A DNA stretch of 64,000 bases from Sphingomonadales bacterium (GTDB lineage: Bacteria; Pseudomonadota; Alphaproteobacteria; SMXS01): the NCBI GenBank assembly GCA_022844405.1, contig JALHLV010000010.1:1-64000 (forward strand), read 5' to 3'. The translations under genes and the position numbers were made by a program. Shown here one piece after another: positions 13,696 through 61,708 of this stretch. Position 1 is the first letter of the stretch. Each line of letters starts with the position of its first letter. The notes below the pieces were generated by a model. The model did no database searches, was not told the origin of the DNA, and saw nothing but the letters and a program-made list of their open reading frames with translations.

Positions 13696-14667
13696 ATGAA
13701 AGCCATCATGTGCCGTGAATTCGGCGACCTGTCCGTGCTGAAGCTGGAGGAGGTGCCCGATCCTGTCGCCGGGCCAGGCCAGGCGCTGGTGCGCATCCGC
13801 GCCTGCGGCATCAACTTCGCCGACAGCATCATGGCGGCAGGCAAGTACCAGAACCAGCCGGCGCTGCCGTTCATCCCCGGCTCGGAAATCGCCGGCGACA
13901 TCGTCGCCCTGGGCGAGGGCGTGGGCGGGTTCGCCGTCGGCGACCGGGTGATGGGCCTGACCGGCGGCGGTTATGCCGAGCTGGCGGCGGTGAACGTCGA
14001 CCGGCTGACGAAACTGCCCGGCGGCCTGGGCTACGAGCAGGCGGCCAGCTTCGCCGTCACCTACGGCACCAGCCATGTGGCGCTCGCGCACCGGGCGCGG
14101 CTGCAGCCGGGCGAGACGCTGCTGGTGCACGGCGCGGCGGGCGGCGTCGGCCTGACTGCGGTGGAGCTGGGCAAGATCATGGGCGCGCGGGTCATCGCCA
14201 CGGCGGGCGGGCCGGACAAGCTGGAGATCGCCCGCGCCGCCGGCGCCGACGAGGCCATCGACTATCTGGCCGAGGACATCCGCGAGCGGGTGAAGGCGCT
14301 GACCGGCGGGCGCGGTGCCGACGTGATCTACGATCCGGTGGGCGGCGACGTGTTCGACGCCTCGCTGCGCTGCGTCGCCTTCGAGGGCCGCATCCTGGTG
14401 ATCGGCTTCGCCGGCGGACGGGTGCCGCAGATCCCGGCCAACCATGTGATGGTGAAGAACGTCGATATCATCGGCGTCAACCGCCCGGCCTATGACGCGC
14501 TGGCGCCGGAGGTGTCGCGCCGCAGCCAGGAGGAACTGCTGGGCTGGCTGGCCGAGGGCCGGATCAGGCCGCTGGTGTCGAAGACGTTCCCGCTGGAGCG
14601 GGCCGTCGAGGGCCTGGAATCGGTGGTGACCCGCAAGTCCACGGGCAAGGTCGTGATCACGCCGTGA
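13696..14667 (+). CDS. NADPH:quinone oxidoreductase, zinc-independent MDR family
   Basis: 323 residues. GroES-like N-terminal domain (ACGINFADSIMAAGKY, then FIPGSEIAGDIVALGEGV) and Rossmann domain with LLVHGAAGGVGLTAVEL; no zinc-binding Cys cluster, so quinone-reductase type rather than alcohol dehydrogenase. The C terminus ends STGKVVITP. It probably reduces quinones or enones with NADPH. It is co-directional with the flavoprotein 10 bp upstream, and they may be co-transcribed. A related MDR gene (58399-59397) exists elsewhere in the window. Confidence 0.87.
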   Translation: MKAIMCREFGDLSVLKLEEVPDPVAGPGQALVRIRACGINFADSIMAAGKYQNQPALPFIPGSEIAGDIVALGEGVGGFAVGDRVMGLTGGGYAELAAVNVDRLTKLPGGLGYEQAASFAVTYGTSHVALAHRARLQPGETLLVHGAAGGVGLTAVELGKIMGARVIATAGGPDKLEIARAAGADEAIDYLAEDIRERVKALTGGRGADVIYDPVGGDVFDASLRCVAFEGRILVIGFAGGRVPQIPANHVMVKNVDIIGVNRPAYDALAPEVSRRSQEELLGWLAEGRIRPLVSKTFPLERAVEGLESVVTRKSTGKVVITP

Positions 14668-14751: not shown

Positions 14752-14779
14752 TTGATTCACGGCCGGGGAGTCTTAAAAT
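14752..14779 (+). promoter_or_regulatory. Promoter of the intergenic small RNA
   Basis: TTGATT (14752-14757) and TAAAAT (14774-14779) are separated by 16 bp. The predicted start, about 14786, coincides with the first base of the hairpin that begins the RNA. Confidence 0.6.
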
Positions 14780-14786
14780 CAGCCTC

Positions 14787-14884
14787 GTACCTTCGGCCGC
14801 GTTTCTCGCGAGAAGGTACTGCCCTTCGTGGGCGTTTCCTCCCTAAACTTGGGCCACTCCAGGCAACTGGAGTGGCTCTTTTTT
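14787..14884 (+). ncRNA. Candidate small RNA with CUCCC linker (copy 1)
   Basis: An independent transcription unit between two genes. Structure in order: hairpin GTACCTTC/GAAGGTAC (14787-14794 with 14812-14819) with an inner CGCG/CGCG stem; a small hairpin GCCC-TTCGT-GGGC (14821-14833); an unpaired linker TTTCCTCCCTAAACTTG; and a terminator hairpin GCCACTCCAG-GCAA-CTGGAGTGGC with TCTTTTTT. From CUCCC to the T-run it aligns with 59756-59798. A single-stranded CUCCC next to hairpins is typical of alphaproteobacterial anti-Shine-Dalgarno sRNAs, but I cannot assign a named family. Confidence 0.65.
14853..14884 (+). terminator. Rho-independent terminator of the small RNA
   Basis: A perfect 10-bp stem GCCACTCCAG/CTGGAGTGGC with loop GCAA, followed by TCTTTTTT. 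Confidence 0.9.
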
Positions 14885-14900
14885 GATCCCGCCAGGCGGA

Positions 14901-15824
14901 TCACACCGCCTTGAGCAGCGTGGGCGGCAGCGCGGCCAGCGCCAGGATCAGCGCGCTCATGGCGCCCTGGAGCGCCGCGAAGCCGTCGGCGCGACCCATG
15001 GTCGCCTCGTCCATGTAGAGCGCCCGGTTGATCTCGATCTGCAGCGCGTGGCGGCCCTCGCGCGGCACGCCGTAGTGCCGGGTGTTGAAGCCGCCCGAAT
15101 AGGGATCGTTGCGGACCACGCGGTAGCCCTGGTCGGCGAGCGCCTGTTGCGCCGCGGCCATGACCTCGCCGTGGCAGCTCCGGCCGTAACGGTCGCCGAG
15201 GATGAAGTCGGGCATGGCGCCGGTGCTCTTCAGCGGCATGTCGCCCCACGAGCCGCCAACCGACGGCATGGAATGGCAGTCGACGAGCACGGCGCAGCCG
15301 AACTGGCCGCGGGTCCGGTCGAGCAGCCGCGACAGCGCCTGGTGATAGGGCTTGTAGACCGCCGACACCCGGCGCTCGGCCTCGGCGAACGGCATGCGGC
15401 CCCGGTAGATGGCGGTGCCGCTCGCCACCACGCGGGCGATGGTGCCGAGCCCGGCGGCGACGCGGCCGGAACGGGCGTTGACGAATTCGGGCAGCGGCCC
15501 GTCGAACATCTCCGGGTCCAGCTCCCACGCCTCGCGGTTCACGTCCAGATAGGCGCGGGCGTAGGTGGCCTGGATGAGCGGCGCGCCGAGATGGGGCGCG
15601 GCGCCGAACAGCTCGTCCACATAGGCGTCCTCGGAGGCGCGCAGCGTGTGCGGGTCGAGCCGCGACGACGACACGAAATCGGCCGGGTAATATCGGCCGC
15701 TGTGCGGCGACGAGAACACCAGCGGCGCGGTCTGGCGCGCCGGCTCGGTCACCAGGCATGCAGGCGGTCCGGCCTCCGTGACGGGCGCGGCCTGGACTTT
15801 GCGTGCGGGTTCGCTGGGGGTCAT
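14901..15824 (-). CDS. N-formylglutamate amidohydrolase family protein
   Basis: 307 residues. Family motifs: FSSPHSGRYYP near residue 37, ASEDAYVDELF, ARAYLDVNREAWELD, DCHSMPS in the centre and QIEINRALYMDE near the C terminus. The enzyme hydrolyses N-formylglutamate to glutamate and formate in histidine degradation, though many family members act on other N-acyl amino acids. No hut genes are present, so the specificity is uncertain. ATG 15824. It runs toward the small-RNA terminator from the other side. Confidence 0.85.
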   Translation of the reverse strand: MTPSEPARKVQAAPVTEAGPPACLVTEPARQTAPLVFSSPHSGRYYPADFVSSSRLDPHTLRASEDAYVDELFGAAPHLGAPLIQATYARAYLDVNREAWELDPEMFDGPLPEFVNARSGRVAAGLGTIARVVASGTAIYRGRMPFAEAERRVSAVYKPYHQALSRLLDRTRGQFGCAVLVDCHSMPSVGGSWGDMPLKSTGAMPDFILGDRYGRSCHGEVMAAAQQALADQGYRVVRNDPYSGGFNTRHYGVPREGRHALQIEINRALYMDEATMGRADGFAALQGAMSALILALAALPPTLLKAV

Positions 15825-15995: not shown

Positions 15996-16070
15996 GGGCG
16001 CATAGCTCAGTGGTAGAGCACTACGTTGACATCGTAGGGGTCGCAAGTTCGAACCTTGCTGCGCCCACCA
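15996..16070 (+). tRNA. tRNA-Val (GAC)
   Basis: A complete cloverleaf of 75 nt. The acceptor GGGCGCA pairs with TGCGCCC, the discriminator is A and CCA is encoded. The D arm reads GCTC..GAGC, the anticodon stem CTACG/CGTAG has loop TTGACAT with anticodon GAC at 16028-16030, and the T arm is GCAAG-TTCGAAC-CTTGC. It reads GUC and, by wobble, GUU valine codons. A TATAGT promoter lies just upstream. The 163 bp that follow hold a CTCCCC/GGGGAG hairpin but no clear terminator. Confidence 0.95.
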
Positions 16071-59652: not shown

Positions 59653-59712
59653 CGGAAAGCGCAAATCCGGCTGCCGTTAATCTGCCGTTAAGGTTCACCC
59701 GCATAGAGTGAC

Positions 59713-59798
59713 GTCATCAGATCGGCATCACCCCTCCCTTGGCCGGTCTGATGACTCCCCCAGACTTGGCCGCTCAGGCATTGCCGAGCGGCCTTTTT
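59713..59798 (+). ncRNA. Candidate small RNA with CUCCC motifs (copy 2)
   Basis: A 13-bp hairpin GTCATCAGATCGG/CCGGTCTGATGAC (59713-59725 with 59743-59755) carries a loop CATCACCCCTCCCTTGG, followed by an unpaired CTCCCCCAGACTTGG and a terminator hairpin GGCCGCTC/GAGCGGCC with an inner GGC/GCC and CTTTTT. The second half aligns with 14840-14884. -10 TAGAGT at 59704-59709 is weak, so it may be an independent RNA or the 3' end of the DUF1192 transcript. Confidence 0.6.
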
Positions 59799-61685: not shown

Positions 61686-61708
61686 CAAGATTAGGGAGAA
61701 CTAATCCT

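What the first reader, a model, noticed from the sequence alone, without database searches (positions are those of the whole stretch)
14752..14884. Free-standing small RNA with CUCCC linker, related to 59713-59798
Promoter, two hairpins, single-stranded UUUCCUCCCUAAACUUG and a perfect terminator in 130 bp between genes. From CUCCC to the T-run it aligns with the locus at 59756-59798 (CUCCC..A.ACUUGG.CC.CUC.AGGCA..., then AG.GGC.UUUUU). Two homologous copies, each with unpaired CUCCC, suggest a multi-copy anti-Shine-Dalgarno regulator family.
Basis: partly seen in the sequence, partly recalled or inferred. Interest (0 to 1): 0.75.

Follow-up and report, generated by a model that had tools for sequence, protein, structure and literature searches.

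The report
Known alpha-r8 small RNA with siblings
The stretch encodes a bacterial small RNA of a known family (alpha-r8: MmgR, SisA) that probably silences messenger RNAs by covering their ribosome-binding sites, and the same genome carries two diverged siblings that show this blocking sequence twice.

Summary
14752-14884 holds a promoter, a 5' hairpin, a small hairpin, single-stranded UUUCCUCCCUAAACUUG and a terminator. It is a canonical alpha-r8 sRNA (Rfam RF00519 suhB/MmgR, 64.2 bits, cut-off 41). It carries the 10-mer anti-Shine-Dalgarno seed of Caulobacter SisA-D and lies tail to tail with an N-formylglutamate amidohydrolase gene, the family's usual neighbour. All 10 genomes held of its taxonomic family have a copy over cut-off. 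It is a new member of a known kind.

The second claim also holds. 59713-59798 is a diverged sibling: 20.9 bits here, but its syntenic ortholog in a sister genus scores 42.8. A third copy lies on another contig. Loci 2 and 3 form a variant with two CUCCC motifs, one in a covarying hairpin's loop and one in the linker, laid out like AbcR1/2 (alpha-r15), although RF02345 does not match them. All 13 readable copies have TTAA-N7-TT[A/C]A near -35, a CtrA-like box.

Best mechanism: Hfq-assisted pairing of the seed to ribosome-binding sites of several mRNAs. Transcription, Hfq binding, targets and the CtrA link are inferred. Interest is modest; the two-motif siblings are the newest part.

The parts
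14752..14779 (+). promoter of locus 1: TTGATT-16-TAAAAT
   Evidence: similar hexamers (CTTGATT ... C/TAAAAT) in most genus copies of the alignment
14786..14884 (+). locus 1: alpha-r8 (RF00519) sRNA, predicted transcript of about 99 nt
   Evidence: RF00519 match 14814-14891, 64.2 bits, cut-off 41; start inferred from the promoter
14787..14819 (+). 5' hairpin GUACCUUC/GAAGGUAC, upstream of the Rfam model except for its last arm
   Evidence: fold; re-forms with other bases in sister genera
14820..14834 (+). small hairpin UGCCC/GGGCG
   Evidence: fold; identical in 10 of 10 family genomes
14835..14844 (+). single-stranded 10-mer seed UUUCCUCCCU (anti-Shine-Dalgarno)
   Evidence: identical in 9 of 10 family genomes, first base changed in G008; same 10-mer as SisA-D
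14851..14884 (+). intrinsic terminator of locus 1
14901..15824 (-). N-formylglutamate amidohydrolase (FGase) gene, convergent with locus 1
   Evidence: PF05013 E 4.8e-77, over cut-off; TIGR02017 below that model's cut-off
59677..59691 (+). TTAA-N7-TTAA box upstream of locus 2 (CtrA-like)
59713..59798 (+). locus 2: diverged alpha-r8 sibling with two CUCCC motifs
   Evidence: RF00519 20.9 bits; orthologs and model R1
59715..59753 (+). locus 2 hairpin with CCCUCCC (59732-59738) in its loop
   Evidence: covariation in alignment A1; position
59755..59759 (+). second CUCCC of locus 2, in the linker
59768..59798 (+). terminator of locus 2
   Evidence: fold

Best explanation
14752-14884 is the gene of a trans-acting sRNA of the alpha-r8 (RF00519, MmgR/SisA) family, about 99 nt long. 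It is transcribed from its own sigma-70-type promoter (inferred from sequence). Its two 5' hairpins leave the 10-mer UUUCCUCCCU single-stranded (predicted fold; the outer hairpin re-forms with other bases in relatives). With Hfq, whose gene is present, it pairs by that seed with purine-rich Shine-Dalgarno regions of several mRNAs and blocks their translation (inferred from SisA). The genome has two further, diverged siblings, at 59713-59798 and on contig C4; they present a second CUCCC in a hairpin loop and share a different, CtrA-like promoter box, so the siblings probably bring overlapping seeds into play under different conditions.
For: RF00519 64.2 bits over the whole model, cut-off 41; best hit of the genome, E 9.1e-13. 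Over cut-off in 10 of 10 genomes of the taxonomic family and 32 of 60 genomes sampled, own included. Seed, small hairpin, terminator and FGase neighbour are those of the family as described in PMC12559287. Of 73 FGase loci, 42 have TTCCTCCC on the opposite strand within 400 nt downstream. Hfq gene present, E 2.3e-32. Siblings: syntenic orthologs, G007 ortholog 42.8 bits, covariation; a model made from loci 2 and 3 alone finds locus 1 in 10 of 10 family genomes at 22.4-31.2 bits.
Against: No expression data. The match of locus 2 in this genome is below the Rfam cut-off (20.9 of 41), as are 11 of the 12 locus-2/3 copies scanned (2 of these, L209 and L213, have no RF00519 match on their strand at E <= 1). 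14 of 73 FGase loci show no TTCCTCCC in the fetched DNA (4 of them with under 400 nt of flank) and 17 have it elsewhere. No target is shown; RF00519 matches below cut-off also turn up in all control genomes at E <= 10.
Confidence: 0.9

Rival explanations
1. The element is only a terminator between two convergent genes, or a 3'-UTR piece of the upstream oxidoreductase gene (13696-14667), with no regulatory role.
For: It lies between convergent genes and ends in a strong terminator; the upstream gene runs in the same direction.
Against: A promoter of its own; the seed and small hairpin upstream of the terminator are conserved in 10 of 10 family genomes and match RF00519 over the full model.
Confidence: 0.05
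2. The locus at 59713-59798 is not a sibling but an unrelated sRNA (for example of AbcR, SorX or SorY type) that resembles locus 1 by convergence on CU-rich seeds and G+C-rich terminators.
For: Only 20.9 bits to RF00519, with SorX 15.9 and SorY 11.4 as weaker matches; its layout is that of AbcR1/2; SorY 25.9 bits at the G007 ortholog, cut-off 111.
Against: The G007 ortholog passes the RF00519 cut-off (42.8); RF00519 is the best Rfam match on the right strand in 10 of 12 locus-2/3 copies; RF02345 (alpha-r15) has no match at loci 2 or 3 in the own genome at E <= 10; model R1 recovers all locus-1 copies of the family.
Confidence: 0.15
3. The TTAA-N7-TT[A/C]A box of loci 2 and 3 is the site of another OmpR-type regulator, not of CtrA.
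For: The box also reads as a direct repeat GTTAA-N6-GTT[A/C]A; nine OmpR-type output domains are encoded, one of them ChvI-like by my recall. The genus genomes hold only 2-7 full sites each against 8-14 for the reversed control pattern, so no wide CtrA regulon with full sites is visible.
Against: It equals the published full CtrA motif of Caulobacter, whose 5' base lies near -35 of activated promoters; a site with TTCA as second half is also reported there (PMC4287350 passages). A CtrA C-terminal fragment is encoded (NF045991 E 5.4e-33, 114.6 bits; a fragment, below the model's cut-off of 350).
Confidence: 0.4

Closest known systems
SisA, Caulobacter crescentus (alpha-r8)
   Same: Same 10-mer seed UUUCCUCCCU downstream of a weak hairpin, terminator, FGase neighbour, several siblings in one genome.
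   Different: Here an added 5' hairpin that re-forms in related genera. Siblings here share a promoter box, whereas SisA-D show no common promoter motif. No CrfA-like sponge was looked for.
MmgR, Sinorhizobium meliloti (RF00519)
   Same: Full-length match to the family model, 64.2 bits.
   Different: MmgR is 77 nt and the only alpha-r8 copy of its genome; the predicted RNA here is about 99 nt and has siblings. Control of PHB was not testable here.
AbcR1/AbcR2 (alpha-r15, RF02345)
   Different: RF02345 has no match at loci 2 or 3; linker and terminator are alpha-r8-like; gene neighbours differ.
CcsR / cuckoo RNAs
   Same: Alphaproteobacterial sRNAs with CU-rich motifs (recalled; the cuckoo paper is not held).
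   Different: Those are tied to DUF1127 genes; here the neighbours are FGase (locus 1), DUF1192 and UbiH (locus 2) and LGT (locus 3).

Membership tests
alpha-r8 / RF00519 (locus 1) | Covariance-model score at or above the gathering score of 41 | tested here: met
   64.2 bits over positions 1-77 of 77
alpha-r8 / RF00519 (locus 1) | Single-stranded 10-mer UUUCCUCCCU downstream of a weak hairpin, then an intrinsic terminator | tested here: met
   14820-14884; definition from PMC12559287
alpha-r8 / RF00519 (locus 1) | Gene beside an FGase gene (most species) | tested here: met
   14901-15824, PF05013 E 4.8e-77
alpha-r8 / RF00519 (locus 1) | Hfq-dependent repression of mRNAs through the 10-mer | not testable with these tools
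   Only the presence of an Hfq gene was checked
alpha-r8 / RF00519 (loci 2 and 3) | Covariance-model score at or above 41 | tested here: inconclusive
   Not met in the own genome (20.9 and 29.8); met by 1 of 12 locus-2/3 copies, the G007 ortholog of locus 2 (42.8)
alpha-r8 / RF00519 (loci 2 and 3) | Exact 10-mer UUUCCUCCCU in the linker | tested here: not met
   Linkers read ACUCCCUAAACUUGGG-like or ACUCCCCCAGACUUGG-like; the loop has CCCUCCC. They are therefore called diverged siblings, not canonical members.
AbcR / alpha-r15 RF02345 (loci 2 and 3) | Covariance-model match | tested here: not met
   No match at either locus at E <= 10 in the own genome
CtrA-activated promoter (loci 2 and 3) | TTAA-N7-TTAA with its 5' base near -35, bound by CtrA | tested here: inconclusive
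   Motif and position fit; binding not testable; no excess of full sites in the genus genomes

The most novel reading that the evidence does not exclude
In this family of Alphaproteobacteria an alpha-r8 gene was duplicated into a distinct sRNA type (loci 2 and 3) that presents two independent anti-Shine-Dalgarno seeds, one in a hairpin loop and one in the linker, as AbcR does. It came under a CtrA-type promoter, so that one sRNA on an ordinary promoter and cell-cycle-timed siblings share a target network. It would be an sRNA branch that couples the cell-cycle regulator to broad translational silencing and bridges alpha-r8 and alpha-r15.
Probability: 0.35. Interest if true: 0.6.

Novelty: new member of a known kind. 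Interest (0 to 1): 0.35.

Why it matters
It places a firm alpha-r8 member, with siblings, in a little-known lineage and shows how the family diversifies: an added 5' hairpin in the FGase copy, and a two-seed form with a common promoter box in the others. If the box is CtrA's, a widespread anti-Shine-Dalgarno sRNA family would gain a direct link to the alphaproteobacterial cell-cycle regulator, and the likeness of alpha-r8 and alpha-r15 could be studied through an intermediate.

Tried and rejected
Alpha-r15 (RF02345) as the identity of loci 2 and 3: no match there. amtB, near locus 2, as a target: the window leader's TTAGGGAG is complementary to CUCCCUAA, but its duplex energy with the seed region (-19.6) is ordinary against 84 ORF starts of the window (median -18.3, 5th percentile -24.1; the starts include spurious ORFs); the genus leaders give -20.1 to -23.2 and the G007 leader, without the motif, -13.2. 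A ClpB-type gene (-27.0) is better, but the strict site was seen before it in only 3 of 10 genomes.

The two-motif form outside the family: 91 of 289 class genomes, 4 of them of the own genus, match model R1 at E <= 0.01. Of 26 non-family loci read, none has two CUCCC; 24 have one and 2 have none. Only the best-scoring loci were read, so weaker two-motif copies elsewhere are not excluded.

Loci L141 and L142, fetched as possible further copies, lack the layout and were dropped. RNAalifold on alignment A2 did not draw the outer 5' stem: MAFFT sets the sister-genus arms out of register, so that stem rests on single folds, not on counted pairs. In one search my script took the wrong strand for several regulators; it was redone. 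A first attempt to file this report had its fields garbled and was not filed; in rechecking I corrected the box-to-loop distance, the G008/G009 neighbour statement and the counts.

Full report
Observation. A scan finds one promoter-like site, TTGATT-16-TAAAAT at 14752-14779, and one terminator, stem 14851-14878 followed by six T. Folding 14785-14885 gives a 5' hairpin (14787-14819), a small hairpin (14820-14834), an unpaired UUUCCUCCCUAAACUU and the terminator, z -6.8, 0 of 200 shuffles as stable.

Identity. Against all 4227 Rfam families the stretch matches RF00519 (suhB, 'Makes More Granules Regulator', mmgR) over the full model at 64.2 bits, cut-off 41. It is the best of 16 matches in the own genome at E <= 10, with E 9.1e-13. 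Of 60 genomes sampled (own included) 32 have a match over cut-off; all 10 held of the same taxonomic family do, at 53.7-65.5 bits. PMC12559287 (I saw the abstract, section 7, part 1 of the discussion, and passages) describes alpha-r8 sRNAs by a terminator and the single-stranded 10-mer UUUCCUCCCU downstream of a weak hairpin, with most species carrying one copy beside an N-formylglutamate amidohydrolase (FGase) gene. It reports that SisA pairs by the 10-mer with an mRNA upstream of its start codon and represses many mRNAs, and that mutual inhibition of SisA and its sponge CrfA is much reduced without hfq. The window has the same 10-mer at 14835-14844 and an FGase gene at 14901-15824 on the other strand (PF05013 E 4.8e-77; TIGR02017 E 3.5e-39, below that model's cut-off).

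Linkage. Of 73 loci found with the FGase protein in titled genome records, 42 have TTCCTCCC on the opposite strand within 400 nt downstream; 17 have it elsewhere in the fetched DNA and 14 not at all, 4 of the latter with less than 400 nt of flank.

A 5' hairpin of this lineage. The Rfam match begins inside the downstream arm of the 5' hairpin. In the 10 family genomes the small hairpin is identical and the seed is identical in 9, with its first base changed in G008. The outer 5' stem is GUACCUUC/GAAGGUAC or near it in the genus, GUAUCGG/CUGAUAC in G007, UUACCUG/CAGGUAA in G009 and UUGCCUG/CAGGCAA in G008: it re-forms with other bases. Folding that 37-nt stretch alone gives z -3.8 to -6.8 in the 8 family copies tested (2 of 10 were dropped as duplicates of the core), against -0.7 to 1.3 for control stretches further upstream; of 29 distinct copies outside the family 4 fall below -2. 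Without the upstream arm the downstream arm is predicted to pair with CCU of the seed (third fold), so one role of the hairpin may be to keep the seed open; that is inference.

Locus 2. The locus at 59713-59798 scores only 20.9 bits to RF00519 here. DUF1192, UbiH and PII genes flank it in G001, G002, G003, G005, G006 and G007 as in the window (DUF1192 is PF06698). In G008 and G009 the DUF1192 side matches; no UbiH match was found in the 1.4 and 0.8 kb fetched on the other side. In G004 only the terminator half is seen, near a contig end, next to UbiH and PII. The G007 ortholog scores 42.8, over the cut-off. Locus 3 lies on contig C4 of the own genome (29.8 bits) upstream of an LGT gene, with related copies in G001, G003 and G004. 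Among 12 locus-2/3 copies scanned with all of Rfam, RF00519 is the best match on the right strand in 10 (23.7-42.8 bits, 1 over cut-off); L213 has none, and in L209 the only RF00519 match lies beside it on the other strand.

A two-motif variant. Eleven locus-2 and locus-3 sequences align into a 12-pair hairpin whose loop carries invariant CCCUCCC, a linker with invariant CUCCC, and a terminator. Six of 20 consensus pairs have changes on both sides, four of them in this hairpin. G008 and G009, not used for the model, show the same layout. It is the layout of AbcR1/2, where a loop motif and a linker motif act independently (PMC8844928, passages); but RF02345 gives no match at loci 2 or 3. A model built from loci 2 and 3 alone still finds the locus-1 copies of all 10 family genomes, at 22.4-31.2 bits, as common ancestry predicts. 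In 289 class genomes 91 match at E <= 0.01; of the 26 non-family loci that I read, none has two CUCCC, so the two-motif form may be confined to this family.

Promoters. Loci 2 and 3 share TTAA-N7-TT[A/C]A, with its first base 52-56 nt before the loop motif, in 9 of 9 and 4 of 4 readable copies; it is TTAA-N7-TTAA in the six genus copies of locus 2, and a -10-like element follows in 10 of 13 by a simple pattern. The full motif occurs at 2 places in the whole own genome, against 12 for the reversed control, and once in the window, where 0.11 matches to the looser pattern are expected. It is the published CtrA full motif of Caulobacter, found near -35 of activated promoters (PMC4287350, passages). 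A fragment of CtrA is encoded on C41. Against this, the genus genomes hold only 2-7 full sites each, fewer than the reversed control, 8-14, and another OmpR-type regulator could bind such a repeat. I hold CtrA at about 0.5.

How it works. Most likely all three RNAs act with Hfq (gene present) by covering Shine-Dalgarno regions. Shown here: family membership of locus 1, predicted structure, conservation, siblings. Inferred: transcription, Hfq binding, targets, regulation. A strict search for AGGGAGGAA before ATG gives 2 sites in the own genome; one lies before a ClpB-type gene (Clp_N and AAA domains; the name ClpB is recalled), with 12 nt complementary to the transcript. Such a gene has the site in 3 of 10 family genomes, and its seed duplex energy lies between the 1st and 5th percentile of 84 window starts. 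It is a candidate, not a finding.

Novelty. Locus 1 is a new member of a known family. I saw no description of two-motif alpha-r8 copies, or of a CtrA-type box on them, in the listings of six literature searches or in the passages read, but a phylogeny of the family that I recalled by its DOI is not held, so I do not claim that they are unpublished.

Noticed in passing
L215 (G005:C1:323398-323485 and about 100 nt upstream): An extra copy in G005 with TTAA-N7-TTCA and two hairpin loops with CCCCTCCC in a row, its linker without CUCCC.
   Followed up: partly
L143/L214 (G004:C119, start of contig): Locus 2 of G004 keeps only its terminator half; the 5' half is replaced by other sequence near the contig end, by assembly or by loss.
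   Followed up: no
G001:C46, G002:C2 (two places), G004:C57: A perfect palindrome TTAATCAWTGATTAA recurs in several genus genomes, twice about 4 kb apart in G002.
   Followed up: no
61686-61708: The amtB leader carries TTAGGGAG, complementary to CUCCCUAA of locus 1 and locus 3; duplex energy is ordinary.
   Followed up: partly
L038-L040: Close relatives of this genome are titled 'Rhizobium sp. Q54' and 'Candidatus Kuenenia stuttgartiensis' in the records; the names look wrong for them.
   Followed up: no
15996-16067: A tRNA gene lies just beyond the FGase gene (72.1 bits).
   Followed up: no
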